Assembly: GCA_029250825.1 (NCBI GenBank)
Contig: JAQXEN010000033.1
Location: forward strand, 1-41,133
Reading direction: 5' to 3'
DNA length: 41,133 nucleotides
Origin: Porticoccaceae bacterium
GTDB lineage: Bacteria > Pseudomonadota > Gammaproteobacteria > Pseudomonadales > Porticoccaceae
In this document: positions 1 through 41,133 of the stretch, piece after piece
Position numbering within the stretch: the stretch's first letter is position 1
Layout: each line of letters begins with the position of its first letter
Made by a program: the position numbers and the translations under genes
Notes under the pieces: generated by a model
Seen by the model: only the letters and a program-made list of their open reading frames with translations
The model's database searches: none
Told to the model about the DNA's origin: nothing

Positions 1-720
1 CCGAAGCCGCCGACAACGGTATTGTCGCCACCCAGAGCAGTAATATTGTCATCGCCACCCTGGTCAGCTGCAGTAGATTGAAGCTCGGCAATAACACCGG
101 CATTAAAGTTGATCTCGCCACTGTCGCCTATCACTGTGTCGGAGCCCGAACCAGCATTAACCGTATCGGCACCCTGACCCGCGATAACGATATTGTCGCC
201 TTCGCCTACTGCGATCGTGTCCACATCACCTAAGGCTGTTTCACTGCTGACTGCGCCGGTCAAAATGCCTGCGGAGTAAGTCAGCTCGCCGTTATCACCC
301 AGTACCACATCAGTGCCACCTAGAGTGGTCACGTCATCATTGGAGAGACCTGCCAGAATACGGTTGTCGCCATCGCCTGCATTAATGATATCGCGACCAG
401 TAGTGGCCACATCTTCATCATTGCTGCTTAAACGAACCGCATTGCCATTAACATATTCAATAACACCGTTATCACCGAGGATCGCGTCAATGCCGCTACC
501 GGTTGTGATCGCGTCGCTACCAAAGCCACCGACAATCGTATTGTCGCCGCCAAGCGCGGTGATGCTGTCATCACCCCCCTGGTCAGCAGATATAGATTGA
601 ATAGAGGAAATCAGACCAGCAGCATCGTAATTAATCTCACCGTCGTCACCAACAATCAGATCATCACCAGAACCACTCTGAACAGTATCATTACCAACAC
701 CAGCAATAATGATATTGCTT
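1..720 (-). repeat. C-terminal RTX-like array of ~58-residue units, continuing out of the window
   Basis: Four units each contain a GD(D/N/S)G(E/V) core: GDDGEINYDAAG, GDNGVIEYVNG, GDNGELTYSAG and GDSGEINFNAG. Equivalent codons begin 174, 177 and 171 bp apart. A higher-order period of about 519 bp (173 residues) is visible from ADQGGDDSITALGGDN to ADQGGDDNITALGGDN. The array has no end within the window. Confidence 0.8.
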
Positions 721-3700
721 CCATAGCGATCAGTAATCGCATCGTTAGATGACTCGGAATCTACGCTGACAATACGCGCCATAGTGACATTGCCGAAGCC
801 GTTGAAGGCCTGCTCAGCTAATAGTGCCCTTGCCTCCTGATCTTCAACCCGGCCATTATTACCAAATATAATATCGCGACCCGCACTGCCAAAGATGATG
901 TCATCACCGGACATGCCGCGTATTAAATCGTTGCCCTGACCACCAAGGATCATATCATTCCCGGCCCCACCCCAGAGGGTGTCATTCCCCAACATTCCAT
1001 TGATATAGTCGGTGCCTTCTTGGCCGCTTATCTCGTCATCACCGCGCCCGCCAGACAATACATCGTCACCCAGACCGCCAGTGATTTGATCTTTATGCAG
1101 GCCGCCATGAACTTGAACCGCCAAGTCTGATGCCGAGGCATCGAACACATCCTCTCCATCCTGAGTAAAAGTGTGTATGCGACGGTCAGCAAACCGAGCA
1201 CCGTCCACTTGAGTACTTAAATTGGACGCTGCGGTGGCCGAGGCGGCAACAGTAATCTGGTCATCACCTTCGTTTGTGTAGAGGGTAGTAATGCTAAGAT
1301 CGCCAGAGTAGACCGATTCAATCTCAATAACATCGTCACCTCTGGAGGTCCAGATAACCAGACCATCATCGAAGTTGCCGTCTGTGGCCTGATAATTGAT
1401 TACACCAGCTGATGCGCCACTTAGACTGCTATCGGTTAACACAATGGCAGCATCACCAATGGTACTGTCAAAGTCACTTATATAGAGCTGGTTAACACCG
1501 CTGCCAGCCTCCAACTTCAGCTCACCATTTATGCCATCTAGATCGCCATGAGCAACCGGAGAATCGCTTAAATCAGCATCTGCGTCTGACGTCACATAGA
1601 TGCGATCATCTCCAAGACCCGAGTTAATCGTTGTAACAGTGCCAGCGGCAGTCGATTGGACATTGATATCATCATTTCCACTACCTAAGAAGATATCTAG
1701 CTGATCAATGCCGTAATAGTTGATTCCTTTGACCCGCATTTTTAACTCAGCATCACCCGTAATATCTGACTCGCTGATACTGTAGTCAGCATAGGCACCC
1801 TGGAAGATAAAGGTAAATACACTGCCATTCTTAGTCACTGAGAAGTTATCCGTTTCAGGGTAGTAACTTCTGCGCTCTAAGCTATTGTTCGGGTTCAATA
1901 GCAAGTTTAAGCGGCTATACCAATTAGCCCCTTCTTCGTCAGTGGCAAAACCGGCCGTTAATGAGCCTAAGTCAGCAGCGCCACTAAATCCTACTAGGTA
2001 AGTCTTAGTCGTATCATTCAGGGCGCCAGATGACAGCTCAACCGAATCAATTGAAATAGTTGAATTATCCGCCGCAGTGAAGAGTTCAGAGAGTAGCCCT
2101 TGCAGACTCTCCGCGGAACTGTTGGCATCCACTGTACGGCTGACTACTTGATCCCCATTAGTGAGACTTAACTGATAACTGCCTTCAACTTCCGTTAGAG
2201 TAATCTCGCCACTGCCTCGATCAACATTGACTGCGCTAGCTACAGGTAGACTGTCTGCATCAAACTCGACAGAGCCCAGAGGCAGTCCGTCAGGAGACTT
2301 GATTTGCAACGTAATTGAATCTTCACCATTAATGCTGACTGTCTGCACAGTAGTCATCGCAGGATTTTTGGTTCCCTCCGCTATCACAGTGATTTTCGCC
2401 TGAGCAGATAGTGGAGATGAATCGGTAATTTGCAATTCAGTGGAAAAATCAGCGGTTAATTCGCCCAAGTCATTAGTACCAGAGAACTCTATTAGGTAGG
2501 TCTTAGTTGCATCATCTACAGTTGCAGTGCCAACTAAACTAATACTACTGATTGATACAGTTATACCCGCATCAGCATAGAGCTCACTAAGAAGCGTTTG
2601 AAGGCCTGAAGTGGAAATATTGGCATCTACAGACTGGCTAACGAGATCGCCATTCTCTGCAGTTAGACTTAGCTGATAAGCATCTTCAATCGCCGTTAAA
2701 GCAATCTGGTTGCTGTCACGGTCAATATTGATTGAACCCACATGCGCAACACTCAGCGTTGCAATATCCAGCGCGCTGGTGTCGACGAGATTGGCCGGAT
2801 TGACCTCGATTACATAAATATTAGTGCCATCAATATCGTTTTGCGCAAGCGTTACATCAACTTGTATTTCCGGATTGTTACCCAGCAGTTGCGTAATCTT
2901 GGCGGCCATTTGCTCCGCTGTTGCTCCAGCACTAACAACCACTGAACTGCTGTCACCGGCAGAGATTGTGTAATCCTCTTCTTCCACAGTTGATCGCAGC
3001 GTATATTGTTTTGCAAAAGCGAGTCCGTTATCGACATCGATATCAGCGCTAATGGTCGGCATGTTGATGCCCGCAGAATTACCGACAAAGGAAATCTGGT
3101 AAACCTTAACTTTGGCACTGGTTTGGCCTTCTATGAGCTCGATCTCAATGTCTGTCTCAGCCGCTCCAGAGACCTGACTAATGGCAGTGGTAATCTCTGC
3201 CAAAGAAGCATCCCAGCTCAGAGTTTCCGCAACAGAGCCCTCTGTCAGAGATAGACTATAAACACCGGCTTCGGCCTGAATTTTTAGAGTGAATTGCTCA
3301 GATACACTGGGCATATCCAAACCAGTGATAGTGTTTTCTGTCACCGTTAAGCTATTGTCATTTTGATCAAAGCTATCATTAACCGTCACCAGATTGTTAG
3401 CAAGGTCGTCACCGGAGATGGTCAACAACGCCATAATCTGGTCTGCCAAGACATCGTTACTAGCAATATCAACGCGATTATTGGTGGGGCCAGACGCGTT
3501 GGCTTGCAGATTTATTGTGGTATGACCTGAGATAGTCTTAACGTCAATATCATCGTCACCGAAACCTGTATTGATATTGGTTAGACCAGTATGGGTGGAT
3601 TCAATAACAAGAGAATCACTACCTCCACCCAGAGACATATTCAACTCTTCAAAGCTCGAATATCTAATGCCCCCCGGAATATCAATTCCCTCGATTTGAA

Positions 3701-6700
3701 TGTCCTCACCCATGCCAAAACCAGTGATCCTGTCACTGGTAAGGATGCCCAATTCGTCAACAGGGCTTCCCGTGTTATTAAAGTTGAGCACATCAACCTG
3801 TTCAGACTCATCGACTCGCTCATTGCGATTTACCGGACGGTAATAATATTCTTCGCTGCCAGAACTACGGTCGAAGACAGCCGCTGACGGCCAGTCTCCA
3901 GCCAATATCATCCGGTTGCCCACTACCGCTAGCACATCAAACTGCACCAACTTCTCGCCATTGGGGCCTACGAAACCAACTTCATAGGGTGCCGTATTAA
4001 TTCGCTTGTCAAAGGCATAGGTGTTTTCATCTGCATCTCTATCGTAGAAGGTCACATCTTCATCGACAAAGGTGCCAAATTGTTCAACGTCAGAATTGTC
4101 AGCAAGGTAGTCTTGTAATATCTGGTAGCCACCATTCTCTGCATCCGCGTCGGCCTGCAGCAAGAAGTCTTGCAATTCAGCCCGGGTGACAACCTCAGAA
4201 TTAGCCAGCGTAATCTGAACGCCAGCAGCTGACATATCACCATCCTGATTGCCCGCGACTGAACCTAGAGCCATCAAACCATTGGTAACCGGCGTATTCG
4301 ACTCTCCTGGAACCAGCACTGGGTTACTCAGCTCAATATAGCTAGCAGCAACAGCACCACCCTCAATACTAATTGGCCCACGAATACTGTTCACCCGCTG
4401 TTCCGCCGGGGCAAAGACCTGAAGATCTCCACCATCTACCAAATCGTCGTCAACAGCAGCAACAGTAACTATGCCGGTATCCAGATCTATACTGGAATCG
4501 GTTTGAACTCGCCTCGATGCTCCACCATCGGTGAATGCTCTTGCTGAGTCGTACGCTGCAGTCTCGAGGTCAGAGACCTCTACACCGAGCAAACTCGGCT
4601 GTGTAAGTGCAACTCGATAAGTGTCGCCCAGCTGGCTTTTCCAAGAGTCATAGTCATTGCCTAGCGCGCTGCTAACCGAAGTAAACACTTCATAGTGGCT
4701 CTCGCTGGATACGTCGCTCCATGATAGGCCCTCAGGGCTTGCCTCATCTTGTGGTTGAATTGTAAATCGGTTGACCTTAAGACCGTCTTCATAGGCAACA
4801 AAACTACTTATCAGTCCCACCAATCCCGCCTGAGGACCAGTAGTAATACGAATGTACTTATTTGCGATGGCCTGATTAGCCAAATCGATGGCATGTTCAT
4901 GTACAGATATATTTAAGTTGTAGGAACTGCCAGGCGCCACACCGACCCACTGGTGATCAGAGTTATTTGTAGTGGTATCGATAGTCGTAGTGCTGGTATG
5001 CCAGTACCAGACTGAACGCTTAACTGTGGTGGTCTGCTGGAAAATCGTCGACTCTACATACCCGACCTGAACTACATAATCACCGGCACTGGAGAACAGG
5101 TGCTCAAGGTATGGATCATCCGAGGCTAAAACAGCAATCGGTTTTAAATACCCGCCATTATCCGCAATCTCATTATCAGCATTAACGATATCATTGACGA
5201 AGCTTGCGCGAACGTCTGGCGTCCAATCCGCTGACAGCGCATCAATATCACTATCAGTCAGGGAGTAGCTACTATCAACAACCTCATAAATAATCAGGTA
5301 GGGGGTTTGCACCTTATACTCTGTACCCTGTGTAGTGGCACTAATCACACGCGATGTAGAAATTAAATCATTGGGAGCAGTTTCAACGCCATTAGCCTCA
5401 CGCCGCTCTGCCGCACTTGCGGTATCTGCAAATTCCCATGGAATTCCAGAGTATGAGAAAGTCCGTACCAGCTGCCTCTCTTCTTTAACACCGTCTAGGT
5501 CAAACAGCGATCCAACACCTTCAACATTCGCCTTTAACTCAACGATCGCATCACCAAGACCACTTATGGTCAACCTTTTGGCTTCAGTATCAATGACACT
5601 GTTGAAGCCGCTATCATTCAGCGCCACGTCTAACTCTTCCAGAATAGTCGTGAAGGTGGGTAGTTGATTTCCATTACCAGCCCCCGCTTGAGCTGTAGCG
5701 ACGCTCTGACCATCAATGCTGACAGTCCAAGATTTGCCGCCATAGATCGTGGCAGCGGAGAAATCATAAGCGTAGTCATCAAAAATATCGTCTCGAGCGA
5801 CCATGTCAGAGGCAGAGCGCTTTTCAACAGCACTTATATTGGCGGCAAATGGCAGATTGTCTGACCGCTCAAAGGTCAGCTTGGTATTAGACGTATCAAA
5901 GGCAAAGTCATAATCACTAAATTCAAGCTCTAGAGCCGCCAGCATATTGCTGTAGCGATCATCGCCAACGCCTTCAATCGCGATATTACCCGAGGCACTA
6001 TTAATATCGACCGTCCAGAACCCATCAGTGTCAAAGTGATCGGCTACACCAGCGAGGTCAATTTCTATCTGGAATCTGTTGTCATTGTTCTGGGTAGCAG
6101 TAAATGTTATCTGCTCCTGAGCAACGGAAGGCTCTACCGAATTAGTAAATTCTATCGTGGGAATACCAGTCAGATCCGGCCCTTGCTCGTTATACATGTA
6201 AGCAAATTCATCACCAGTACCTTTGGTAACCAAATAGCCATCAGATGACGAATAGGTGGTTTTAACCAAATCCAGAAGCGTGCTATTTGTAGTGGCCGAA
6301 CCCGCAGAACCAGTGGTTAACTGATAGTTCGCACCGGATAAATAACTGCCACTCAGACTGAGCTTTTGCCCACTAAAAATTTGATTAGCAGCTGCAGTGT
6401 ATTGCACTGACCCAGCACTAATACTGATTGGCGAGGTAACAGTGGCTTGAGAGATATCCAGCGTGGTCGCGTTGAGAGAGTAATCTCCAGAGTCAGCCCA
6501 GACACTTCCAGTGTAGGCAAAGACCTGCTCATCGCCATTGATGATTAAACTAATTTGATCCCCCGCAACAGCGGTTAACGAGAAGTCATCTAAGTTGGCG
6601 TTTCCATAGATATTTTGATTGGAAAAGGATAGATTCGTCTCATCAATATATTGATAAGAATCCGCCGAACGACCCTCAATGGTCGTGGCAAAGTTACCTG

Positions 6701-9700
6701 AACTATCGAGACTGAAACCAGTGGTATTTGAATTCCAAGGCTGGTTATCGGCATTGAAAGTGAAGACCACCTCGTCACCGTTATCGAGCGTAACCGTAAC
6801 AGTGTCATTAACTCTGCTGTCAACTGTTTCCAACTCAATAGCTGATCTACCGAAAGATGGAGCACTATAAGACTGGAGAGAAACATCCTCTACAGCGGCT
6901 GTGTAGACTGCTCCCGCAAGAGTAATATCCCCTGCTGTGTCGGCGGATGCATGACTAATAGTAAAGGTGCCAGCAGTATTATCCTCTAGGCTGTAAGCTT
7001 CAATTGTAATCCAGAAGCCTGAGTTATATTCAAAGAGCACGTTCGCACTGTCGATGGTGACATTCAGCGTATCGCCATCGTCAAAGACAGTAGCGGAATC
7101 ATAGGCTAGTGTCGCATCAGTTTCGGTAAGCGATATGCCAGTAGCTACAGGCGTATAGGTTGCGTTAGCAAGAGTGATTCCTACGGAAGGGTCGGTAGGC
7201 GAATGGCTGATAGAGAATATTCCTGCGCTCTCAACGACCAAGCTATAGGCTGCATTAGTAGTCCAAGCACCCGAAGCCGTAGCATAGGTAAAGACTGTAT
7301 TGACATCGTTAATGACCACACTGAGCTCATCACCCTCACTAAAGCTTGTTGAGCTGTCATAGGTAACCGTTGCATCTCCATACACAGGAGTATTGGTTAC
7401 ATTGTCTACCGCAGCGGCCTTATCGAGATAGATCGCACTGGCAACAGTGAAGGTAGAATTTCCGTCTGAACTAAGTACTCGAGTACTTCCGTCAAAGCTA
7501 AAGTTCGGAATATCAAGCCAGTCTGAGCCACTGTATTCGAATGTAAACTCGTCGCCACCTTCCAGAAAGATGGTTAACGTATCCCCTGCAACTGCCGTCG
7601 GCAGGACATCAGAAGTCGCGTAGTTATCGATGACCACAGCATCTGTGCTCGACAAAACTTCAACCAAGCTAAAGGCGCTGCTGCTAGTTGTGGTATCAAT
7701 AATAATGTGGTCGGCATCAACTACTACAGAATCGGTAAAGTTAGCGTCAATGTTGTAGGCCGACAGGAACGATTCTGCAAAACCTGCATTAGTTACCACA
7801 AAGTCCAGCGTTTTACTGTTGGCACTATCGATCAACTGCCACTGAGAGCCTTCATTGGCGGCCAGCACCGGTATAACAACAGCCTGACTGACACCGCTAA
7901 GCACTGGCAGGTGAACATTGTCATAGCTGATATCGAGCTGGTACGAGGTGTCCTCTGTAGCGACATTAATCACCAAAGTTGTACCAGAGATATCTGCAGC
8001 TTCACCAATCCAGGTCTCAAACGACTGCATAATGTCTGCTCGAGAGCTATTGGAACCACCGGTAGTAACCGTGTGACTGGTTTCATTGCCATCTGCAATA
8101 ACAGTCAGAGTCCAGGCTTCACCATCGTAATTAACCTCGGAAGAACCAAAGTCGATCGTTAAAGTTTGACCGCTGCCAATTTGCGCAGGAGTTCCCGTCA
8201 ACGTAGCCCCGGGAACAAAAGACTCATCAACTCTGTTTCGGTCTTGCATAACCCAAATCGAAATCGCCTCTGGACTATCATCAGCATAATCCAGTAAGCC
8301 GCTATTTAAATTGAGAGCAGAATGTCGATTTGCCATCTCAGTGGCAAGAGTGACCACATCATCGCCACTTTCCAGCGTGTAACTATGCTGTTGATCACCA
8401 ATCTGAATAAACCAAGTATCACCCTCTATCACTGTTGCGTCATCGAAGCTTATCTGGGCGCTACTAAACAAGATGTTACCCGTTGCATCATGGTTGTCTA
8501 CAACAGTAATTTTTGGGGTATTCGTCTCCAGCGGCTGGGTAATCGTCAGTGCAGGACCATTATCCAGTGTATCAAAGTAAAATGCTGCGTTTTCTCCAGC
8601 GCTGAATATCAGGTTATCGCCATCTATCTCAACTGCAATTAAGTCATCAAAGCTCGAGTCTAAATTAAGCGCGGCAACAAGGTTCGCAGCCAAAGTGATG
8701 TCACCATCTATTGGATAATCATCAATTTCGATGATTTCATGGACAACTTGGCCCGGCTTGTTGATCACTAGAGTAGTGCTCATCAGATGATCGTCTACAG
8801 AATCACCTGCCATATTAAGGGTAGCCGCGGATAACCAATGATCAATTAACGATCGTGAATCGTCAGCGTCAAAGCCGTCTGCACCACCGGCAATCATAGC
8901 TTCAGTGATCTCGATCTTATATCGATCGACAGACCCATCACCGGCACCAGTGATTGTCGTATAAGGTGTCGATGAGTCGATATTTAAGCCCAGCGACGAT
9001 CCCTCATCACCTATGCTGGCGTTGGCAAAGTTGTACCAGTCAGACTGGCCGTCGATGTCTGTGCCCACACCAGTACTATTTTCGGCTTCGTTCTCGATAA
9101 CAGTATCTGGAGTAAAGGCCCATACATCTTTCTGGTGCGACTCAATAGACACTTGCAACTCATAGTCCACTCCATCGGGAACACCCCACTTAAATCCTTC
9201 GCTGTAGCTGTAATACCAATCATATTTATTGTTGATCTCAATCGTGTAAGTACCCACAGTATCAATTTCGTAACTATTGAAATCATCATAATAATAGGAC
9301 GCACTACCCTGGCTATCCTCTTGGCCGGTTACACGCCCTGATGTGTCATCAGTGTCAGCCGGCACGATTTGATTAACCGAATCTTCTCCTTTGAATAATC
9401 TAAGCTCGCTGCGCCACCAAATGTCGTCTTGCTGCTGTGAGTCGAAGTAAAAACCATCATCAATATCCAGGTAAACAGTAACTGAACCCCCTGAAAGATC
9501 CAGCATCGCCTGAGTTACTTCAAACTCGTAGAAATCCGCACTGCCCTCCAGCTCTCCACTTACACTGATATGTGGAATGGAATCAGAGTCTTTGATATCG
9601 GCATCACTCTCCATTCCCCATTCTGAGACATCGAGATTTTGCGCCGAATTAAAGGTGTTGTTCTTAGTGTTTTCTGCAATTTCAGGAAGTCCAAAGGTAC

Positions 9701-12700
9701 CCTCAAATGCCCAACTGTCGTTCACAGCCTCAAGAGAAGACACAACTTGCCCCTCGGCATAAACAACTTCCTGGGCCTCTTCTGTAACCTGAGTACTACC
9801 CTGGCTTTCGAAGAAAATAATATCTTGAACCTCATTATCACCCACCATTACATCGACATGCCCAATGCTGATATCAGCATAAGCAGCGTCTTCACTCAGG
9901 ATGCTGTGACTAATGCGGCTGTAATGAATGCCCTCTACAATTTCATCATTGATGGCACCAATGGTGACCTCGACGGCGCTATCCCAGAGATAGATTCCAT
10001 CGCCTTCATTAACCTCAGCGGCAGTAGCAACAAAGGTTATAGATGAGGGCTCTGTGGTCAACTGGGTTAGGCCCTTCTCATTCACATCAGGCGTAATATT
10101 GACGTGCACCGGACTAGTTGGCTGTTTAGAAAGCGCCAAATGATAGGTGTCATAGCCGGAGGCGTAATTATCCTGACCAACGTCTAACTCACCCACAATA
10201 AGCTGTTTCTGAGAAGGCAGAATAACAACAGTTGGAGAGTCCGCATCAACGACATTAACGACAAATGTGTTCACTTCTACGTTATCGTATTCATCGCCGT
10301 CCACAGCGCCATCTTCAACAATACTATGCTGAATTTCATAGGCCTGAGTGCCCTCGATACCACCATTGGAAGCGTCGCTGTCCTGAGGGGCGCGCACCGT
10401 AATAATTTGCTGCTGATACCAATTGCTCTTATCGAACAGCAGCGTGACGCCATCGGCACTGCCATTTAGTAAAATACCATCTGAGTAGATATTGCCGTCG
10501 TCCTGGCTGCCAAGATCCTCACCCTCCAAGCCTGACGGAATGGCGGAGAAAGACACGACACCCTTAGGTGGCCTAGTGAGCACTACTGCATACTGGACAT
10601 AAGCAAAGCGAGCGAACACTGAGCCTAACTCGTCAGGAATACCGTCATACTCAAGAAGGGTATTTCCATTGGAAAGAGGAATTAAGCGAACATCAGCCTC
10701 GTCTTCATCAAACACATTGGCGCTCAGGGTATTAGTAACACCTGCCGCACTGTGCTCAATAAGGCTATTGTGGCCTTCAAGATCATCTGCAACGACCTCA
10801 ACACTGCTACCCACATTGGCATCGCCTACATTGACAATATCAGAGCCCAGTCCACCTATAATTTTGACCTCAGAACCATCCGGCGTACTAAATACAAAAA
10901 ACTCGTCATTGCCCTGCAGACCATCGATTATCAGCTGTTCAATACTGTCATAACCGGTGAATCGCCCAGCACCATAAATGCCCTTATCAGTAATCACATA
11001 ATCATCGGCAAACTCGGTGCCTATCACGGTAAGAGAATCAAGACCGTCGCCACCGGCAATCCGCACAGGGGCATTGACTGCATAAGATATGTAGTCGGCG
11101 CCAGCACCACCATTAATATTGGTTATCGGTGCAAGGGGGTCATTGGGGTCTACCAAGACAAAAGAGCGCACCAAGAAATTATCACTATCAGCACCGCCCT
11201 CCAGTTTGAGTGAAGCTTTGTTGCTTAATACCGTAAAGCTATCATTGCCATCGCCGCCAATTAGTGTGGCATTGGCACTGATACCGTTGGACAGATAGCC
11301 CTGAGTCGTAAGAATGGTGTCAAAACTATCTTCCTCGGTCAGTCCAGCCTCTGTGCCTCGCGGCGACTGGTACATCTGTCCGACCTGGAAGGTATCGTCA
11401 CCGGCACCGGCATCCACAGTCACCAGCACATTGCTTTCATCAAAGATAAAGCTATCGTTACCACCATAGGTGGATAGCGAGAGCGCGGTAAATCCAGTGT
11501 AGTCAATTCGCTGCTCTGCGACATAGCGGTAAAGCAGACCATCTCGGAACATGAACTGATCATCTACCTCGGCAAATTCCTCGGTATCGACAAAGAGCCT
11601 GTTACCCACAGAGTCAGCATCGATTGCCGTGGTGTCGATAATTTCTATATCGCCAGTCGCAGTTCCGAATAAGCTAAGACTGTAATCATCGGCTTCGGTG
11701 CCGCCGCGCAATTGCATGTTACTAACCAATCCAGCCTGTTCAATAACAATACTGTCCTGACCGGCATCGGTTCTCAGCTCTAACGCCGGGTCAACGTAGT
11801 CATCTGGTTTAGTAATATCGCCCAACAGCGACATTTCGACATCATCGTCACCCGTACCCGTGACTAGGCGTAAGCCCTCGATCTCAGCATTCTCGCCAAC
11901 GCTTAGATTGGCGGTCACTGACCCATTGCCAAGGTCAACACTCATGGCACGCAATAGGTTATTTGAGGAGGTTAAGCGGGCCGCTAAATCAGCCTCAAAA
12001 TCAAAGGTATCGGCGAAATCCCCAGTAGATTGCAGGCTCAATCCCTGCACTTCACCCGAGACTTTAATGTCCGCATCTACACCGCCATCGCCAAACTGAA
12101 GGTCTACAGAATACTGAACAGTTGCAGGCGCGGTTATCTGCGCCTCGGCCTGAACGGTCAAATCAACGATATCGTTTTGACTTCCCGTGGTCTCAAGGAC
12201 AATGCCTTCGATCTGACCATTGAGATCCATAACAGCAGTTGCCGAGCCCTCACCAAGCCCAACATTGACGGCGTGCAATGAGTCATCTGTGGAAGTAATG
12301 TTGGCCGTTATACCGGTAACAAAATGTAAGCTGTCAGCATGATCACCTGAGGACTGGAGACTAATTCCCTGGATTTGGCCTGCCAGCTGGACATCCGCAT
12401 CCAAGCCACCCTCGCCCATCTCTAATTCTACTGAATACTGATCAGCGGCGAGCGCGGTTATCTGCGCCCCGGCCTGAACCGTTAAATCAATTTCATCATT
12501 TTCATTTCCCGTGGTCACCAGGCCAATGCCTTGAATCTGACCATCTAGATCTATTGTGGCGTCCACAAGACCACTGGCTAGATTAAAGGCTAATGCCTTA
12601 TTAACGCCATTAACCGATCTGATATTGGCGCCGTTATTGATGGTTAAGTTAATGACATCAGCAAAGTCGCCACTGCTATCCAGAGTAAGCCCATAGATCT

Positions 12701-15700
12701 CACCGCCTAGGATAATATTCGCGTCAACTGCCGCTGCCCCAAGATTCAAGTCAACTGCCGCCTGAGTATCCGTAGCGGAACCGACATTTGCATCAATTGA
12801 GATATCGAGATCGGCAGCACCCGAGCTGGCATTTAGCTTAAAGCTCTCAGCCGCACCCTCCAGAGTCACATCGACCAGCACGGGGCTATCATTCAAGTTA
12901 AAGATCACATTGCCGATAGCGCCAGAACTTGTCATGGTCACACTGTCCTGACCCAAGCCCCCATTTAAGGTGAGATCACCCAAACCATCGCCAGCCGCAA
13001 GAGTAATCTGGTCCACAGAGGAACCGCTATTGATCAACAGATCGCCGAACATTCCCTGAGTGGTCAAATTAATAGTATTTGATGCATTGCCGGTATTAAT
13101 TGTCAGGTTCTCAATAAACCGGGCACCCTGCATAATGATCTCTGCGCCATTCACGCCAGTGTCATTGAAATCATAATTTTCGGCATTAATATTCAGTACA
13201 ACATTTTCAATATTATTGAACCAGAAACCAGGGTTAATCGAAGTAGAATTTTGACTGAGACTTATGCTGTCATAAGTGATCTGATAATCATTGTCTTTCG
13301 CCACCACATAACTCTCATCGACTTCGACGAACTCGTCAAAAGCCTCTCGCAAAACAACTTCAGTGGGTAAATAAAAGCTGTTGCTGTCTTTAAAGGTCTG
13401 TATATCAAAATAGCCAACCCGATCACCGGCAGCATCTAATTTAACTCGAGTACCATCTTCAACCGGCGCCGCGAAATCCACGCCGCTTATTAACTGAGTT
13501 TGCGCAAAGGCACTGGTGATAAAGGCCGATACATTGTTATCAGTGAAGGCCAAGTTCGCCATATCAGCTCTTCCAGCAGCGGTCACATAGGCACTCCAAT
13601 TGGCCTGTGTAAGATACATACCACTCTCTAACAACTGGTTATTTTCCACCGATCCGTTGACACGCTGGATAGCAACCGCGCTTAGCAACTTATCACCATA
13701 GGCATCAACGCTGTAATAGCTGTTGCTATAGTAGGATGTGTTTAATCCACCCAGTTCTTGCACATACGCCTTGAGCATTTCAACATTATTGCCAGCAAGG
13801 CCATCTGTATCAGTATCCTCACCAATCGAAATCGTTGACAGCCCAGAGCCGTTAGCAACGATTTTATACAGCGTTGGATCGGCCGAGCCTTCAGCACTTA
13901 TGGCCTCAGGCACTTCATTTATTCCATCGTAGAACCCATCGACCGGCTTATCGTATTCCACATGTAGGCGACCGGCGAAACCATAGTCGGCAGAACCATA
14001 GTGGCCCGCACCCCGAGGCTTATCTAACCCGGAGATCCACAGATTGGCGTCAGCAGCAGTAGACTCATCCCACAGGTCGTCTTTATATTGTCGCGTTGAT
14101 ATTACAGAATCTAATATTGGTGAATTCTGTTCATAGACTCGCAGGGAAGACACTCCAATACGCTCTAAGCTCTGCTCTGCAAGGTCAGCAGTCACCACAG
14201 ACAGGGTCAAAAATGACAATAGGTCGTCTAATGCGCTTTCCAAGCCCGTAAACTTTCCATCTTCATTGTTATCAATCAAAAACGCGAGTTCTGTACTGTT
14301 AATAAACCCGTTGAGATCCTCTATCGAAAAGCTCGCCGCATCTGGCACGTTGGTGCCCGCCGGCAGTTGATTGGACAATGCCAATCCACGATTAGCAAAA
14401 CCAATAATGCTGTCAAACCAAGCTCTCCTCTCAGTACCCTTAGTCGAGGTTTCTTCCGAGCTATACCAAGTGATCTCTGGTAGCACGGCCTCTGCGTCTG
14501 AAATAGCTATTTTGGCATTTATCAGTACGTTTATCTCATCGACCAACAGCCTCTTAATCGACTTGTCAGGTACTTCCCGATCAATGGATATCATCGCTGA
14601 AGTGGAGGTGAGACTATCCGAATGATCAAGCAATCTGTCTAAAACACCGATATCCAACTCTTTGTTACTTCGGAGCAGAGAATTCTGAACATCAGAGTGA
14701 CTAATGGTGATGCCGTTAATCGTTGAATAGGTCTGGGCAGCTAATATTTGCTCCTTATAAAGGGGCTGATCACCACCCGCATCAATCGCCTCGATTGCCG
14801 TCACTAGCTGATCCACGGCCGCAACATCATAAGCAACATAGATGCCGTTTTGCTGCAACAGTTCTGCCTTGCGCACCAATTCTTGGTCGCTGCTAACCTG
14901 CTCTGTCGGGTTTGCCGTTTCAGTCGGCGTCAACTCAGCAATCCGCTGTTGGGCTGCAATCACCTCAGCCCATCTCATGGGATCATTGGCAAAATAGAAA
15001 TCACCTAGCAGCAGAGTTTTAGCGGCTATCTCAGCCTTGAGCACAGTGTCTTCAGCACTGCTTTGGGCATTGACATAGAGATGGTCATTACCACCAGCAC
15101 CGGCGATACGAACCACTCCAGCAATTTTTGAAAGATCGTCAGTCGCGGGAAGAACGCGGGTTTCTGTGCGCTCAGGTAAGTTATCGAAACGGTAACTGCG
15201 GAGCCCATCTACTTCAACTGTTTGCCAGGTCTCAGTGATATTGTAAAGAACATCGTCTCGAGCCTCGATCACATAGTAAAGAGAGAGCAGATCAGCTAAC
15301 AAATCACCCCCACTCTCATTGTTAATAATCGGCTTATTCATATGCCAATTGTCACCAACGCCTTCAACGTGACTCATATTAGCGCTAAATGAGAATCCCC
15401 AAAAACCCCACCAAGACGGTGTGTAAAGTGGTATCTGCACCTGGGTGCTATACATAGCATCGCCGCGTATATCATCGCTGCCGTGGCGATGACCATGAAC
15501 CAAGTCGCCCGCCAAGGCATAATCCACAGCAAAACTAAGGAACTCGTCGTAGAGTAAATCGTCTACTGATAGCAGCCCGAAACCTCCGCCTCGGGTCTGA
15601 TTAATCCAAATACTGTTACCCGTCATCAGCGCCAAAACACCATCAATTGGCAACTCGCTAACCATTTTCGGAGCCGTGCCCGCCTGTAATTGCGGGTAGA

Positions 15701-27700: not shown

Positions 27701-30700
27701 CATAGACATCTTTATTAATGCCCACCATCTCTTCTAACATCCCCTCAAGGGCTGCAAGAATCATATCCAGAGAGATGGTTTTCATTTCGAATAAACTTTC
27801 AAAACCATCAAAGTTTACTGAGGTTGGAAGCGAGTAAACGAACTGAGTAAAGCTCATGTCCTCCGGCAAATTTTCTGAGAAGGCACTGATATAACCTCTG
27901 CCTTCCATAAGATCTGCGAGAACACCGCCTAAGCCAACTGGAATGTAAACTGCATATGAGGGAGATTCGGTAAAGCCGATAGATAAATCTGCAGCTTGTA
28001 GTGCCTGAACATCGGCGCCGTAAAATCTACCTGTGATACCAGCTGACATCTCCGCAGAGAGCTCTATAAAGCCATCTCGACCAGCCTCAAGCTCAAAAAT
28101 ACCCAAACCTAAAGCAAAGGGCGCATCGCCGTTATCGGCCTCGCCAAAGGCCTTGCGCATCACGGCATCACTGAATACTGTGACGCCAACAATATTGTCC
28201 GCAAGGATAAAGGTTGTCTCATCTGTCTCGGCACTGTATCGCAGTTCAGCGACGTCGTAGCTGTCGCTACCAACCATAAGTGAGCCGACGCCAGAAAGCT
28301 GCGCAGACTCTAAGTCCGTTGGTGAGAACTCACCGCTGAGAGTTAGCAATGACTCGCCAGCACGGTTAATAATCCCCTGCAGTTCGGCAGTTGCATCGAC
28401 ACTGTCGGCTAAAGTGACAGTGACATTTTCAATATCCAGACGACTTTCAACTATCTCGTCGAGCCAAATTTTGGTCCTGTCGGTGTCCGCATCATAGTCG
28501 GCCCGATTCACCGATGAGGCACTTACATCACCCACTAACCCCACAACAGAAATCCAATCAGTGGCGCTGTAATCTGAACTGACATCGCCCTCAACAATCA
28601 CGACCGCTCTTTTAGTTCCCGCATCATCTTCTATCGCCAACTGGTTAAAATCGAAGGTTCCATTGCCGATATTAATAGCGGCCTCAATGGATGGATTTTC
28701 CATGTAGAAGCTAAAGGCGGAATCCAGCCCAAGCCCTAACGTTAACGATATGCCTCCAGAAACCGGCAACTTGTAATCACCCGAGATACCAAAGGGTAAG
28801 TCAAAGGGCAATCCGGGTATTGACCAGCTCTCTAGATTAATGTCGATACCTGCGCCATCGCCTATTTCCAACAATGGAATATCGAGATCAAACTGGTAAT
28901 CACCGCCTAAGCTTCTCTCGATGCTATAGCCATTAGCCCGCAGAGCGGTAAGCAGTCCATCTACAGATGGAGTACCAACATTTTGATGGTTTAAATACGT
29001 TTCAATAGCCGTGTTAAAGGTGCTTATCACAGCATCCAATTCATCGAGAAATGAACCGGCATTGGCAGGCAGTAGATCCTCGATGCTAACCGCACCAAAG
29101 GGAAGATCAATGTTAAAGATTTCGTCGAGCACGAAATCATTTATTTTGCTCGTCAGCGAGGAGAGCGAAGTCAGGCCATCCGTCAGCGCCGCCACTTTGT
29201 CGCTATCCAGATGATCCACAACAATTGATTCTCGCAAACCAACATTGATGGTCTCTGCCAGCACGCCCTCTTCAACATGCTCAAAACCCAAAAGATGGCC
29301 AACTTCGTGAGCAATAACGGAATATAAATCTATCTGGTTAGCGGGCACTTCGTCAGTGGAAAGGTCCTCATCCACAAACCAGCCAACACCACCGGCATTG
29401 GGATCCAACGCGATAACCTTGGTGTCATCGTCCACCGATGCAATGGCATCGTCAGTAAGATCACCAACGGCATAAGAAACAGGGTTCGTCACTAGGGACG
29501 TCGTATCAAAACCAGCGTCGGACCAAGCGGCTACGGCAGCAGTGATCAGATCATTAATCGCAGCATCGCCGACCTCTATATCCGCAGTTGCGGGATTAGT
29601 CGGTATCTCTATGGAGGCATCTAACTTAATCAAACCGGCTACAGTGAAAGGATCAGCCGCATCACCCACTGCGCTCTTGCCAATATCAACAGCGGAACCC
29701 ACCCAATTGCCAGCAACAGCAGTCTTTAGCTTATTCGGTGCATACTCAATATATCCGGACGTGTTAAAAGCCAGAATAGTGGAGTTGCCGGCCACTGTAG
29801 GCAGGGTATAGATAGTGACTGAATCATCTATCTTGTCAGAGTACCCAACTACCTGCTGTACACCATCGATCTTGAGAGTAAAGTCAGTACCGTTTTCAAT
29901 TGCAGTTTCTAACTGTGCACGATTGCCTAAATTGACAGTGAGGTCAGCCCCATTCAGGGTAATCACCGCATTTTTATCGTCAATCAAGCTGTCGAGAGTC
30001 TTGTAGCTTCGGCTCGAGCCTTCCTCATAGCCGATAAGATATTTCGAGTCGGCTGTGGCTGTATAGGCAGCGGCTCCGGAGACGCCTAAGGCCTGAAACA
30101 AACCACTGACACCCGTATCTCTCATGGTCACTGAGGCCAGAGCGCCAGCAGTATTACTGGTCACCTGTAACTTATTATCAGCAATACTCCAGACTGCGCC
30201 CGACGTCTCGTTATTTAGCCGTGTAAGTAATTCCCCAAAGGTCTGATCTGTGGCGCCGGTTACGCTGATAAGCGCAGAACGCCCTCCATCCACAGTCACT
30301 AGGGCGCTGTAATCAACGCCTTGGGTCAGCCCTGTTAGAGTTGTCTCCTCCACTGAGGTTGCTGCCAGATTGACCGTAGCGCCGCGATTACCCACCTTGA
30401 GCTGTTGGCCACTAAGGTCACGCTGCACATCGCCGCCAAAGACTATTTTGTTATTGCCAGCCCCAGCATAGACAATATCGTGGCCCCAGCCTTCAGCATC
30501 TTCCTGTTCATTAAAATAGAATTTGTTATCAGCATTATTGCCCAACAAAACATCATTGCCGGTACCGCCGCCAATCAACTCTATTCCGGTAAAAGAAACC
30601 CGGTCTTTGATAGTTTCGAAAATCACAGTATTCGCGGCAAGGGCGCCTGTTCCGGCCACGGCACTATCGATACCGGTGTAGTCAGTTAGTGCTGTAAATA

Positions 30701-33700
30701 AGTCGGAGATAGAGCCTGAAGCAATCTCAAGTGAAGAGGGTAGAGCTGGTGCCTGATTACTGGTGGCAACGAGCTTTCCACCCGCAATAGCCCAGGTCGC
30801 GCCCAGAGTTTGGACGTTTAACTCGTCAACAAGCTCACTGAATGACGATGCCGCCGCCCCCGCAACTACCAGTGACTGCGCTGCACCACCATCAACGGTA
30901 ATGCTGGCTTTATAGTTTGTATTAATGTCTAAACCGGTGTTGCCAATCATCGTGGCCGAGGGCGCAAAATTGACAGCCTGAGAGGCCGCCAGATCAGTGC
31001 TAGCAGTGGTCTCAAATACGATCGTCCAGTGCTTTTGTTGAGCATTATCTGAGGGGCTCTGAGTCACGGTATAAACCGATGTGCTCGAAGCTCCTTCGCC
31101 AGTTTTTATCTCCGCAAGCGCCGTTTCAATCGTTGCTTTGCTGGAGTTGAAATCGATGGCAGTAGTGGAGGAAAACCCGCGATGCTCAAGGGTAAACTGA
31201 GGCGACTGAACGCCCTTTGGCAATTTCGGCACAATAAGCGTAAAGGCTTTATTAACCGCGTCTGCAGCAGTGGCCCCATTCACCAAAACGAGACTGCTAA
31301 TGCCTGCGTACTCGGCCAGATCATAGCCCACGCCCTCACCCGTTGCACCGGCAAAAGAGACCACAGCCCCATCGCTGGAGCCAAATACCACAACATCGCC
31401 GTGTTTTTCGTCCGAGGCTGCCTTCACTCCTGACCACTGCACAGTAGAATTAGCGCCGTCACCGCCGACGATAGTATCAGTGCCACCGGTACCCAGAATA
31501 AAGATATTGTCGGCACCAGTGCCTTTAAAATTATCATCCCCAGCACTGCCCACGGCATTGCTGTAGTCAGTCAGTGCAAAATTCTCTGGCTTGTAGCCCG
31601 TCACTAGACTTATGTACTGGTCCAGACCCATAAGACGATTGCCGTCAATGCCCGTCGCCGACCCATAATTCCACTTCAATCCGCCCCATGTAATGGGCGC
31701 CACAGTCAAACCGCCAAGGGTGAAAGCTGGCATGATTTCAATTGGCGGGATTAATTCATAATTAACGCCGGCGTCCGGATCTATTTTTGCCGAGCCGGTG
31801 TACTCGGAATAATCCAAGACTAATTTACCGCCGCCATTAGGAGTAATGGTGCCTTGAAGAGAGCCGGCGCCAATAAATTTGACCGTTGTCTCACCAGAAC
31901 CCAGTACTAGATTTTCTATATCAGTGGCAAAAATGTAGTTTCCCTGAGCCTTTGTCCATGTTTCATTAAAGTCATATGAACCGAAACCGAAGCTCTCAAC
32001 ATAATCTTTGAGAGATTCGTCTTTTACCAAAATAACATTACCGCCAAGACCCAGAAGGCTCTCCCCCTCGGCATTGGAAATATTTAGAACATCCCACAAA
32101 ACACTTTTTTCATCACCGCCCAGCGTTGCCAGATCATAGATATCAATACTGGTGTCCGAGCCAGTTCCCGATAGATCTAATGTGTCATAGCCCTCGGGCA
32201 GAGCAACACCGCCAACCAAAATATCCGGCGTTTCGAGAACAGCTGCCGCGCCAAAAAACCCACTAAATTTGTAGGTGTCACCGCCACTTAATCCGGCGAA
32301 AATATTTGCGCTAGGCGCAAAGGTGCCGCCTAAATAGTCACCCATTGCCGCGTTCAACACACCATCGACATAGCTGACACCCCTGTCGAGGGCATTGTTT
32401 TCGCCAAACAGCTTTTTATCCGCCAAGGCCAGTGCATCTGCAATCACATTGCCGGCAATAGAAAATGTATCAGATCCGGTATCAATGCCCTGACTGAGTG
32501 CACCGAGAGGGTCCGCTTTGAAGCTATCCCAGCCAACATCAATACCCCAGTTGGAGCCGATAGCAACGGTGCCACCATAGCCAAAGGTAACCTGATCGAT
32601 ATTTTCAATATGACCAAATCCGTTGAGCTTTTGAGATCCAGGGCTCTGGAAAACCAACTTTTTCCCATAGCTACTATCGACAAAGTTTTTAACCGTGAGG
32701 AGATTTTCAAAGAGCTGTACTTCAACTGACGAACCATGTATCGCGCGCAATTGAACTTGCAGGTCTGAAGCCAGCTTAGTGAGCCCCTCAGCAGCTGAAT
32801 AAGTAACCTGCTTAACTGCGGAAGATATGGTGTAATAATGGCCTGCTAAACTAACTTGTCTCTCATAGCCAACCTCAAAGATAGTTCCATCTGTTAGTGC
32901 TTCATTGTTTAGTACAATCGACCATTCACCGTTACCGCTGCTGACAGTATGGTTAAACGCAGTGGTGTCCTCTTGAAAAATAGCGTAAGAGCCCTCAGCC
33001 TTATCAACAAAGTTTGTGAGATCCAGCATTCCCCCATTCATGTCAACCGCATAACCTACCTGAACCCTGTCACTTAGAAGGGCACCCAACGCCAATCCCA
33101 CATCACGGGTAAAGTGGGAGTTGTTGCCGTCATATTTGACTTTTGCCAGCTTGGTCGTATGGCTAGGGCCATCATGAAAGCCTACTTCATAGAAATTCCC
33201 AGATACCAAATGCTGAATATGAATATTCCAGGCTCCAACCGCTTGCCTGGACACCACCTCATGGGGAGAGCCTGATCTATCTTTCTGAAACAGTAGTTGT
33301 TTATTTTCTGCTATATCTGCCGCGTTGGTAATGAGTATTTCAGTGCTGCTTGCACCCTCAGTTACCGTGGCAGCAAGAAAGCCGATAGCCCTCAGCTCAG
33401 CCTGAATAGCGGCACGAAAATCTGCCATACTATTGTTGCTGTAAGTCACGACTCTGAGCGTTTCGGCGTTATTCCTGAGGTCAGTGTCGGCGGGGTAGGC
33501 AGTTAGTGGAGAGCGGAAACCAACCTGGAACTTGTCACCATTGTTTAGAGCCCCCAAGGCAATAGTCCAAGAAGTGTTGTCCCCTGTGACCGTATGAGGG
33601 TAGCCACTGTCACGGTTTATCTCTCTGAGAGATGAATAATTAAAATTGGATGAGGGGGCAGTCAGATCATTTTTATACACCAGCTGATTTGACACTGTAA

Positions 33701-36700
33701 TAGCCGGTAACTTTCCATGGGATACGTCATCAAAAAGATTGTAGTAATCAGCCAGCGACGAGAAACCAGACGAAGCGGTGCTAAATACGCTTTTCTTTGG
33801 CTCAAGTAGTAACTTAAACCCGAGAGCCGAATCTTTAAAACTACTAACGCCGATAAACCGAGCGGCACTGATGGTGCTGTAATTGGTCAGTGAAGCAAAT
33901 AATTTGTTTGTGCCGGTGTCTTCAATACTGATTGAGGCACCAGCTGAACCCTGCTCAACGATAGCCACCAATTTGCCACCGATAATCTGCCAGTCGACAT
34001 TTGCAGTGACGTTTGTGAGCTTCGCAATCAAAGCGCTAAACGTCTGTGCTTCAGCCCCCGCAATAGTAATATTTTGGGCAGGATCTGTACCTACCGATAG
34101 CGTTGCACTGTAGTTTGTACCAACGGCCAAACCAGTGACCGAACTTGCATCTATCTTGCTGCTAAAGGCAATGCTCTGCCCTCCGGCGTCAAACGCCGAA
34201 GCACCAGACTCCATGTTGTTTACCGTTGTCGTTACAGAGGCTATAAATGCCTGCAGATCTCCAGCGTAAGCAACCTCCTGCGTCTGGCCACCCTCGCCAC
34301 TGAAGCCCACAGTATAATTGCCACTGTGAAGCTGTGTGCTCTCAATATCAGCCCACCATTTATTACCATCCCCAGCAATCTGATGCTCGGTGAAAAAGCC
34401 GCTGGGCATGCCTACGGTCAAGCCTTCGCCACCAATTAAGCTGCCGGCAAATTCGACGCCATGCTTAATGACAAAAGTATTGTGATTGCGACCCGCAAAT
34501 ATAGTGGCATTTGCATCCAGATTGGTGAACTTAAGCGCGCTGCGCTCATTGGCGCCATCACCAATAATTGGTAGTTCTTTAATAAAGCTTAAGCCAACAT
34601 TACCCGGCTGGGTAACAGTGAGGCTAATACTGCCGTCAGATTCTTTTGCAAAGGCGAACTTTAGCGCCTTAGAGACATTGCGAAAATCAATCACCAGAGC
34701 TGAATCAATGGATACCGAAGAGGTATCAATGGTCAGGGTGCGATCAGTATTGACCAGTGCCGCCAAGCCAGACCCAATAGTCCCTGCCGCAGCCTCAATT
34801 AGATCATTTAACGCCCCTGCAGATGGACCCCAATCGTTACCGAAAATAAAGGTATTAGCACCCTGACTCGCCGTGATTCGATCGATATATTGAAATTGTT
34901 GCTGATTAACAAGTACCGAATTTGCCGGATTGGAAACAATGTGAGCAGCTACATCAGACGCCCCTGCAGCATTCCAGTCACTCTCTGTTAGAATTGTCCC
35001 ACCTGATTTAGTGCTACCTGTGAGAGCATTCTGGCCGGCTTGCAATGAGCTGCTGATAGCCCCTGTTGCGCCAATATAGTTATTTTCAGAGATGACATGG
35101 ACCATTCCTTCGCCAATTTGGTGATAGTCAACATGGTCACCAAGACTGCCCGTCGAGGCATCTTCAACATCATTGTCTTTAGGGTCTAGCGGATTAAAGC
35201 GCCCATTCGCCTGCGGCCCTTCTTCTGTAATCCTGTCATGACCCCAGCTACCTTCAAAAGAGTAGGTGTCGCTACCGCGCCCTCCATAAACCTGATCATC
35301 ACCAGCACCGGCAAACACCACATCATCGCCAGAGCCTAGCTTTATCTCTTCTGCCCCGTCATTGCCAAATACGACCAGCCCACCAGTGGCATTCGAAAGG
35401 TCAATATCACCATCTGATCCAGCACCGCGAGCATAGACATCTCCGCCACTAAAGCTAGCACCTATAATACCCTTGTCAGCACCTAGCTGGAGTGTCCTTT
35501 CTGCGCCAATATTGTGGAGCAACTGGCCATCATCATCGACAAAAGAGCCAATTGAGTAAGTAAACCCTGGAGCAGCTTCAGAAATCAGATCTCGTCCGTC
35601 GGCCCCAATAATTCGCTTTATAACCAGATTATTGGCCTGCCCATTTGCGATCGCATTATTTTTGCTATTGGTCAATACGCTACTGGAAGTGTGCAGGCGA
35701 CTGTAATTATGCCCATCGCTTTTGAACGCTAAATTCGCCAGCGGGTTGCCACTATCAAAAGGCTTCTGCGATGTAACCTTCAGCACCGAACCGAGCAATT
35801 CGACACTAACAGGGGGAGTTCCTGCAGTCATTATATTAAGCGCGAGCTGAAGATCGTCTTCAAACTCCACCGCCGCTAACGTTCTTATTTCGGCATTCGC
35901 AAAATAAGCCGACTTAGCTTGCTTCTGGGTGCCGCTGCTGTCCTGGATAGCTACCTTGGATTGACCAGCATCGACAATAGTTAAACCGCCATTTGAGGAC
36001 ACCGGAGTCCAGGAACCATTGCCGTTGGAACTGGCGTAGGTGAAAGCATGCCGCACTTCATCGACGACCACATACAATGAATCGCCAGTGATAAAGGGGG
36101 TTGTACTGGTATCTATGACGCTACCCTCAACGTTGAGAGTAGCTCCGTCGATTGACGATTCGCTATAGGTCACAGACTTTGATTGTTGGTCCCCTAAAGT
36201 GAAGTGAAATGCACGATCGTTAGCTACAGCAACGCCATTGAATTTCATCGACTCTTTAACTAAAGGCGTTTTGTAGTTTAAACCTGTAGCGTAATTTAGT
36301 GCGCCTGTGGCGGCATCGCTAACATGTATATTGATCTCTTGTGGAGTGCCGACGAACCCAGTGAAAGCATGCCCCCGATAATGGTTGTATCCCGTATATT
36401 GAAGACTGCCATAATCAACCCGCGCCGGCCTCAAGCTTGCAAAGAGTTTTTTCCCGGAGACTGCATCCCTCAACTCTACCGATGCGCTCAACTCCGACGA
36501 ATCACTTTTGACGGTTAGAATGCCGTTTTCAACACTCCAGGTAGCGCCGCTCGTATCATGGTTTAACTGCTCTAACAGGTCAGAGAAGCGCTGGTGCCAA
36601 TCATCGATTACAACGTCGATGTCTTGCCAGCTGCCAGCGTCGACTTTAACCTGCGCTTTGTAGGTGTTAGATCCCGATGCCACGCCATTGTCGTGAAAGC

Positions 36701-41010: not shown

Positions 41011-41133
41011 ACCCGCGTTCGAGATGACAGTAACCCTAACCTGTCATCCCGACAGAGCGCAGCGACGAGGGACCTCAAAACCTGAACCCACTCCCAAGCC
41101 CGAGATCTCTCACCTGCGCTCGAGATGACAGTA
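41011..41133. repeat. REP-like palindromic intergenic repeat
   Basis: The end GAGATGACAG at 41021-41030 recurs at 41122-41131, 101 bp apart. GATGACAG (41023-41030) pairs with CTGTCATC (41041-41048) across a 10-base loop. The segment 41041-41076 (CTGTCATCCCGAC...GAGGGACCTC) is roughly the inverted complement of 41101-41131. This TGTCATCCCG...GCGCAGCGA...GGAxCTC family of palindromic repeats is common between genes in many proteobacteria. The element may continue beyond the window. Confidence 0.65.

What the first reader, a model, noticed from the sequence alone, without database searches (positions are those of the whole stretch)
1..39344. A single gene longer than 39 kb: at least 13,114 codons and still open
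All sampled codons from 39344 to 59 are in one phase, encode motif-rich protein, and meet no stop. This puts the product among the very large bacterial proteins. The modules form an ordered mosaic, suggesting a long fibre with several functional stations rather than a simple repeat.
Basis: seen in the sequence. Interest (0 to 1): 0.9.

Follow-up and report, generated by a model that had tools for sequence, protein, structure and literature searches.

The report
Giant surface protein with export cassette
A bacterium encodes one protein of more than 13,000 amino acids, and beside giants of this kind sits a conserved set of genes that looks like an undescribed export machine built around a shortened SecA motor instead of the usual ABC transporter.

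Summary
Confirmed: 3..39344 (-) is one open frame of 13,114 codons, no stop, open at the contig end. The gene is real: seven relatives carry 11,426-13,252-aa frames closed at both ends, and three of them align colinearly with it. Contig C51 of the same genome very probably holds the missing C-terminus (638 aa plus stop), so the protein is at least about 13,750 aa if nothing is missing between. It is no record. It belongs to a known kind: LEPR-XLL/DUF4347/RTX giants, with a metzincin motif. The interesting part lies outside the window: the giant sits between TolC and a cassette of GAF-HlyD, M50-HlyD, a SecA-like ATPase lacking the C-terminal third, and a periplasmic adaptor. Of 80 related loci, 78 have GAF-HlyD and 78 the SecA-like gene beside M50; ABC ATPase hits lie in 2, more than 8.9 kb away. 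Among 369 class genomes LEPR-XLL occurs in 30, a strong M50 match in 30, both in 23 (p about 1e-24). I propose an ABC-less, TolC-dependent export route with LEPR-XLL as the signal. Gene content and association are shown; export is inferred.

The parts
3..39344 (-). Giant open frame, 13,114 codons, open at the left contig end; C-terminus most likely on contig C51 of the same genome (638 aa plus stop)
39174..39236 (-). LEPR-XLL domain NF012209, residues 37-57 (contains MENRFLLSAD); proposed export signal
   Evidence: 20.7 bits against cut-off 17; 27.6 bits
38229..38696 (-). DUF4347 domain, residues 217-372; invariant His266 (SHG) and Cys309 (YGC); possible caspase-type cysteine protease fold (weak)
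   Evidence: Pfam 4.9e-46; His and Cys invariant in 13 of 13; Cys309 is one of only 3 Cys in the 13,114 residues; fold hits weak
29193..29444 (-). Peptidase_M10 (matrixin) match, residues 3301-3384, with HEVGHLLGFEH at 29277-29309
   Evidence: Pfam 1e-06 above cut-off; HExxHxxGxxH in 8 of 8 giants, 9e-5 expected by chance in the window's protein; the Met found after the motif in the 7 relatives is absent here
11805..12872 (-). Internal repeat block, residues 8825-9180, copies about 108 residues apart and about 45% identical
3..1109 (-). C-terminal RTX calcium-binding repeat block running off the contig; the repeats probably broke the assembly
39416..40777 (-). TolC-family outer-membrane channel, 453 aa, 71 bases upstream of the giant
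   Evidence: TIGR01844 270.5 bits against cut-off 225; TolC also directly upstream of the giant in Amphritea, an Oceanospirillales MAG and Psychromonas at 53-60% identity

Best explanation
The frame encodes a giant, acidic, nearly cysteine-free, RTX (calcium-binding type) extracellular protein of the LEPR-XLL kind, at least about 13,750 aa if contig C51 follows directly. Its neighbours encode its own export machine. Proposed working: (1) the LEPR-XLL segment, which lacks a Sec-type hydrophobic core, is the export signal and is recognised by the PqqD-like (leader-binding) domain of the M50-HlyD membrane protein; (2) the cassette SecA-like ATPase (both nucleotide-binding domains and the preprotein-binding domain, but no C-terminal third) feeds the unfolded chain from the cytosol; (3) M50-HlyD and GAF-HlyD form the inner-membrane gate and periplasmic collar, joined by the small adaptor and TolC into one duct; (4) the M50 active site (HExxH plus the Asp motif, invariant in 32 of 32) cuts the leader or releases stalled chains; (5) outside, Ca2+ folds the RTX blocks, and the embedded metzincin and DUF4347 domains act on the protein itself or on what it touches. 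Shown: gene content, order, conserved residues, association. Inferred: every transport step, the signal role and the surface location.
For: Gene order TolC-giant-DUF3467-GAF/HlyD-M50-SecA-like-MFP on C77 plus C51 matches Psychromonas, Amphritea and an Oceanospirillales MAG. Of 80 related loci, GAF-HlyD is found in 78, SecA-like in 78, small MFP in 61, DUF3467 in 25, TolC in 14, within the up to 10 kb held on each side (some queries were taken from these loci). LEPR-XLL over cut-off in 43 of 48 cassette genomes, and in 38 of 48 a LEPR-XLL frame lies within 9 kb of M50 on a contig of the same length. Class sample of 369 genomes: LEPR-XLL in 30, strong M50 in 30, both in 23, Fisher p 1.7e-24; 28 of the 30 LEPR genomes have some M50 relative. 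Giants with no BLAST similarity to the window's (Dyella, Pinirhizobacter, Massilia) keep LEPR-XLL and lie near the same cassette. Cassette SecA: Walker A Lys 72 of 73, Walker B Asp and Glu 71 of 73 each, no residue at sampled housekeeping positions from 676 on; one clade, support 100, beside separate housekeeping SecA in 14 of 14 genomes. M50 protein: PqqD matched in 23 of 32 members, adaptor fold at its C-terminus. No Sec-like hydrophobic stretch in 21 of 21 LEPR N-termini. No type I ABC exporter recognised in the genome.
Against: No experiment. The genome is 91% complete, so an ABC exporter could be missing. Seven of 30 strong-M50 genomes lack a detected LEPR-XLL and 7 of 30 LEPR genomes lack a strong M50; two lack any. 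Two of 80 loci lack a detected SecA-like gene. TolC is in reach in only 14 of 80 loci. The window genome's own M50 protein is not among the PqqD matches at E 0.05. In Methylomonas sp. LW13 (cassette and DUF4347 giant) no LEPR-XLL was found. No inner-membrane channel is obvious: M50-HlyD has eight hydrophobic stretches, but that it conducts protein is a guess. The C77-C51 link rests on synteny, not on reads.
Confidence: 0.55

Rival explanations
1. Ordinary type I secretion: the giant leaves through an ABC exporter encoded elsewhere, with TolC; the SecA-like/M50 genes only process or regulate it.
For: RTX repeats, low cysteine, acidity and the neighbouring TolC are typical of type I substrates (the typicality is recalled).
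Against: ABC ATPase hits in only 2 of 80 related loci, both more than 8.9 kb from M50. The three ABC_membrane exporters of the own genome are MsbA, an MsbA-related protein and one unclassified; none reaches a type I cut-off. The cassette itself brings three proteins with adaptor domains.
Confidence: 0.2
2. The truncated SecA works with the housekeeping SecYEG, as SecA2 does in Gram-positive bacteria, delivering the giant to the periplasm; M50-HlyD, adaptors and TolC then move it through the outer membrane or release it.
For: The protein is SecA by sequence, with nucleotide-binding and preprotein-binding domains present.
Against: It lacks the region that in SecA holds the helical wing and two-helix finger used with SecY (domain names recalled); 21 of 21 LEPR N-termini have no hydrophobic signal peptide.
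Confidence: 0.2
3. Assembly artefact: separate genes or a decayed gene joined into one frame.
For: Fragmented assembly; both contig ends lie in or near repeats.
Against: Colinear relatives with closed frames of 12,077-12,607 aa in three other genomes; even codon-position signal.
Confidence: 0.02

Closest known systems
LEPR-XLL domain giant proteins (NCBIfam NF012209)
   Same: N-terminal LEPR-XLL over cut-off, huge size, RTX repeats; a roughly 8,000-aa Vibrio example with LEPR-XLL, RTX and serralysin domains is in print in one sentence (PMC10868602, passage)
   Different: Longer than that example; DUF4347 and a metzincin motif; here tied to a defined neighbouring cassette
Type I secretion systems (HlyB-HlyD-TolC; LapA and SiiE exporters)
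   Same: TolC, membrane-fusion adaptors, RTX substrate without a Sec signal peptide
   Different: No ABC exporter in the cassette; a SecA-like ATPase and a PqqD-M50-HlyD protein take its place; the proposed signal is N-terminal
SecA2 / accessory Sec system
   Same: Extra SecA paralogue beside genes of large surface proteins (accessory Sec role recalled)
   Different: Gram-negative, with TolC and adaptors; C-terminal third of SecA missing; one clade apart from the housekeeping SecA sequences compared (no SecA2 was in the tree)
M50 maturation proteases of daptides and epipeptides (NF041824, NF058609)
   Same: M50 membrane protease related over residues 21-397 (NF041824 1e-44, 153 bits, below its cut-off of 300)
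   Different: C-terminal membrane-fusion adaptor domain; neighbours are giant proteins and an ATPase

Membership tests
LEPR-XLL giant proteins | N-terminal LEPR-XLL domain above curated cut-off | tested here: met
   20.7 bits against cut-off 17
LEPR-XLL giant proteins | Very large single frame | tested here: met
   13,114 codons, still open
Type I secretion system | Dedicated ABC exporter next to adaptor and TolC | tested here: not met
   None of the genome's 3 ABC_membrane matches lies on C51 or C77 or reaches a type I cut-off; ABC hits in 2 of 80 related loci, distant. The genome is 91% complete
Type I secretion system | Membrane-fusion adaptor and TolC-type channel | tested here: met
Type I secretion system | C-terminal uncleaved secretion signal | not testable with these tools
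   Needs secretion assays
Accessory Sec (SecA2) | Second SecA besides the housekeeping one | tested here: met
Accessory Sec (SecA2) | SecA C-terminal part retained | tested here: not met
   No residue at sampled housekeeping positions 676-876 in 73 sequences; 69-82 aa after motif VI against 269-324, one exception of 139
Accessory Sec (SecA2) | SecY2 and Asp/Gap partners | not tested
   Not searched
M10 metzincins | HExxHxxGxxH zinc motif | tested here: met
   Residues 3346-3356; Pfam Peptidase_M10 29.1 bits against cut-off 24
M10 metzincins | Met-turn after the motif | tested here: not met
   Met follows within about 15 residues in the 7 relatives, absent in the window (sequences)
Clan CD cysteine peptidases (caspase fold) for DUF4347 | Caspase-type fold with His and Cys dyad | tested here: inconclusive
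   His and Cys invariant in 13 of 13; Foldseek best E 0.019 to another DUF4347 chain, legumain and caspases 0.07-0.1 mixed with methyltransferases, none at 0.001 or better; model pLDDT 66

The most novel reading that the evidence does not exclude
A widespread, undescribed secretion pathway of Gram-negative bacteria: a shortened SecA motor plus a PqqD-M50-HlyD gate, GAF-HlyD, a periplasmic adaptor and TolC export LEPR-XLL giants of up to about 13,000 residues in one step, with LEPR-XLL as an N-terminal signal read by the PqqD domain.
Probability: 0.35. Interest if true: 0.92.

Novelty: new variant of a known kind. Interest (0 to 1): 0.72.

Why it matters
How bacteria move single chains of over 1 MDa through two membranes is open for many giant proteins. 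This cassette gives a testable machine for a whole named class (LEPR-XLL). It would add a SecA-powered, ABC-free route to the TolC-dependent systems and would give LEPR-XLL, so far a label in the sources seen here, a function. Carriers include named strains (Amphritea opalescens ANRC-JH13, Dyella sp. OK004, Pinirhizobacter soli NC2-4-308), so it can be tested.

Tried and rejected
Considered and rejected: (a) record-size protein: relatives reach 13,252 aa (the class sample even shows frames of 13,848 and 14,112) and a 39,678-aa ORF is published (PMC10066038, passages). (b) Simple repeat protein: 33.5% of residues lie in internal repeats. A first self-BLAST inside one search gave no rows, I think because BLAST drops matches contained in the full-length self match; it is not used. 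(c) Counting cassette genes by filtered ORFs labelled M50 in only 66 of 80 loci, which all hold it; replaced by tblastn. (d) A strict motif VI pattern missed 48 of 78 cassette SecA sequences; replaced by alignment columns. (e) Adjacency of LEPR-XLL and M50 from coordinates alone gave 39 of 48; contig lengths confirm 38 and refute one (G115), and they drop extra coordinate matches in G110 and G127. (f) DUF4347 as a proven protease: fold evidence too weak.

Literature: 10 searches. Among the rows listed none was seen to describe a SecA/M50/HlyD/TolC cassette or LEPR-XLL export. Three searches listed only part of their hits (20 of 629, 15 of 284, 6 of 1,456). Preprints and most subscription journals are not held, so 'undescribed' means only that. 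Papers seen as passages: PMC11573180, PMC10868602, PMC8277102, PMC10066038, PMC8262886, PMC12322963, PMC7352654, PMC9611531; the rest as listing only.

Full report
1. Observation. The window is the whole contig C77 of a 93-contig, 2.33-Mb assembly estimated 91% complete. The minus frame 39344..3 has 13,114 codons without a stop. Codon-position composition is even along the gene, and random codons would give such a frame with probability about 10^-308. Seen mass 1,388 kDa, pI 4.05. The frame is cut at the left contig end inside diverged RTX repeats.

2. The rest of the gene. A search of the own genome with window 1-3000 hit contig C51 (15,062 bases) in the same kind of repeat. C51 begins with an open frame of 638 aa ending in a stop. 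Amphritea opalescens carries a 12,604-aa frame with stops at both ends. Window residues 1-724, 2239-8118 and 10585-13113 align to its 8-746, 2998-8549 and 10120-12352 at 25-38% identity, and the C51 frame aligns to its last 650 residues, 11951-12600, at 36%. The same pattern holds for Psychromonas (12,077) and an Oceanospirillales MAG (12,607). TolC lies directly upstream of the giant in these three, and DUF3467, GAF-HlyD, M50, SecA-like and MFP directly downstream. So C51 is very probably the end of this gene. The total is at least about 13,750 aa if no sequence is missing. The contig ends do not overlap exactly, so repeat copies may be missing between them.

3. Anatomy of the giant. LEPR-XLL at residues 37-57. 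DUF4347 at 217-372, with a His and a Cys invariant in 13 of 13 aligned domains; the Cys, 309, is one of only three in the 13,114 residues. A model of this domain (mean pLDDT 66) matches best the DUF4347 protein of a type VI Hcp3-Tce1 complex (E 0.019), then methyltransferases, legumain and caspases at E 0.02-0.1; nothing reaches 0.001. That is a hint of a caspase-type fold, no more. A matrixin match with HEVGHLLGFEH at 3346; the motif occurs in 8 of 8 giants, including four with no BLAST similarity to the window's giant, against 9e-5 expected by chance. The Met that follows the motif in the seven relatives is missing here. RTX repeats are scattered, with a dense block at the end. Internal repeats cover 33.5% of residues in 24 stretches.

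4. The neighbourhood. On C51 the giant's stop is followed after 34 bases by DUF3467 (104 aa), then GAF-HlyD (616), M50-HlyD (712), SecA-like (664), a small MFP (252) and a 164-aa protein. Two same-family relatives, G018 and G006, have TolC, four genes (in G018 two of them are radical SAM and SapC by Pfam), a giant of 7,639 or 7,864 aa whose N-terminus shows the LEPR-XLL motif, then GAF-HlyD, M50, SecA-like and MFP, each set on a single long contig.

5. How general. By tblastn, 78 of 80 have GAF-HlyD before M50 and 78 of 80 the SecA-like gene after it. Missing are GAF-HlyD in L074 and L121, where M50 starts 6-258 bases from the contig edge, and SecA-like in L055 and L112. MFP is found in 61, DUF3467 in 25, TolC in 14 within the stretch held, which is often cut by contig ends; some queries came from these loci, so a few matches are to themselves. 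ABC ATPase-like hits, with the own genome's three ABC exporters as queries, lie in 2 of 80, at 8.9 and 11.6 kb from M50. In the 48 cassette genomes searched (50 asked, 2 not held), LEPR-XLL is over cut-off in 43; among 14 control genomes it is over cut-off in 1 and rings in 7 at this loose E. In 38 of 48 a LEPR-XLL frame lies within 9 kb of M50: coordinates gave 39, and contig lengths agree for 38. The Azonexus giant lies on another contig. In an even sample of 369 genomes of the own class, M50 relatives occur in 56 (30 with 500 bits or more) and LEPR-XLL in 30 (0 of 14 controls). The strong-M50 and LEPR sets share 23 genomes (Fisher p 1.7e-24; 1.6e-23 without the window's genome), and 28 of 30 LEPR genomes have some M50 relative. 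Against: 7 strong-M50 genomes without detected LEPR-XLL, and two LEPR genomes without an M50 hit (G221, G358). Whether the 30 strong-M50 genomes also hold the SecA-like gene was not tested.

6. The parts. The SecA-like protein aligns to solved SecA over its first part only (query 46-655 to 20-609 of a 783-residue chain). In 73 sequences (72 of 78 loci kept by length, plus the own) the Walker A Lys is kept in 72, Walker B Asp and Glu in 71 each, motif V Arg in 72 and the motif VI Args in 71 and 70, while no sequence has a residue at the sampled housekeeping positions 676 to 876 (every 25th); the aligner did place the own protein's last residues out to 823. A tree of 14 housekeeping and 16 cassette sequences puts the cassette ones in one clade (support 100, stem 1.01), and 14 of 14 genomes have both kinds; the cassette ones include extra copies in three genomes, not all shown to sit in a cassette. 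The tail after motif VI is 269-324 aa in housekeeping SecA with one exception of 139 (a shorter frame, not examined), and 69-82 in the cassette kind. Of 32 M50 proteins, Pfam finds M50 in 32, HlyD_3 in 28 and PqqD in 23 (best 1.1e-6), the own protein not being among the PqqD matches (E up to 0.05); a profile of all 32 matches a solved PqqD only weakly (E 0.09). HExxH and the Asp motif are invariant in 32 of 32. The M50 model (pLDDT 83) matches membrane-fusion proteins (MexA, MacA, CusB) at about 1e-9. GAF-HlyD has hydrophobic stretches at 273-291 and 349-367, the latter just before the HlyD part.

7. Signal. None of 21 LEPR-XLL N-termini (two of them the same gene) has a stretch of 12 residues with mean hydropathy 2.0 or more (my threshold); the window's TolC reaches 2.57 and the giant 1.31. 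Giants of unrelated body keep LEPR-XLL and the cassette, which is what an export signal would do. PqqD-like domains bind leader peptides in peptide-maturation systems (recalled), which suggests the reader of the signal. Inference, not shown.

8. ABC exporter. The own genome has three ABC_membrane exporters: MsbA, an MsbA-related one (both over cut-off) and one unclassified; none reaches the HlyB, LssB or PrtD cut-offs. With 91% completeness a missing one cannot be excluded.

9. Origin. M50 relatives occur in 8 of 98 family genomes, the own included, and in 1 of 35 other same-genus genomes. The closest are in Psychromonas (64%), an Oceanospirillales MAG and Amphritea (61%), against 29-41% in the same family, and the cassette SecA groups with Amphritea's at support 100, not with the same-family G018 and G006. 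Horizontal transfer of the whole locus is likely.

10. Verdict. As a protein it is a new member of a known kind. The cassette is what I did not find in the library searched: a TolC-linked set with a SecA-derived ATPase in place of an ABC exporter, tied to LEPR-XLL. I rate the mechanism 0.55 and the bold form, a separate secretion pathway, 0.35. Recalled, from no call: SecA domain names, clan CD topology, Met-turn, leader binding by PqqD-like domains, and a guess that the family is Porticoccaceae.

Noticed in passing
window 41041-41072 (+): A 32-base interspersed repeat (CTGTCATCCCGACAGAG...) near the right contig end: 41 copies in the genome with up to 3 mismatches (17 forward, 24 reverse), 0 for the reversed-pattern control. 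A REP-like family that probably also broke the assembly.
   Followed up: partly
L037:9046-10932 (G018, upstream of the giant): In the same-family relative G018 a radical SAM protein and a SapC protein lie between TolC and the giant; G006 has the same gene order. A modification step for the giant is possible; not present between TolC and the giant in the window.
   Followed up: partly
L005:1953-2267: DUF3467, a 104-aa protein of unknown function, directly follows the giant and is found in 25 of 80 cassette loci; a chaperone or adaptor for the giant is possible.
   Followed up: partly
window 29277-29309 (-): The metzincin motif is intact, but the Met that follows it in seven relatives is absent here, so this copy may be less active.
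   Followed up: partly
L049 (G019): A more distant M50-HlyD set with an outer-membrane factor-like protein, adaptor and HlyD but no SecA-like match, beside a repeat protein; the weaker M50 hits may be this second type.
   Followed up: no
G385:C84 and G198:C1: LEPR-XLL frames of 14,112 and 13,848 codons, longer than the window's frame; not fetched.
   Followed up: no
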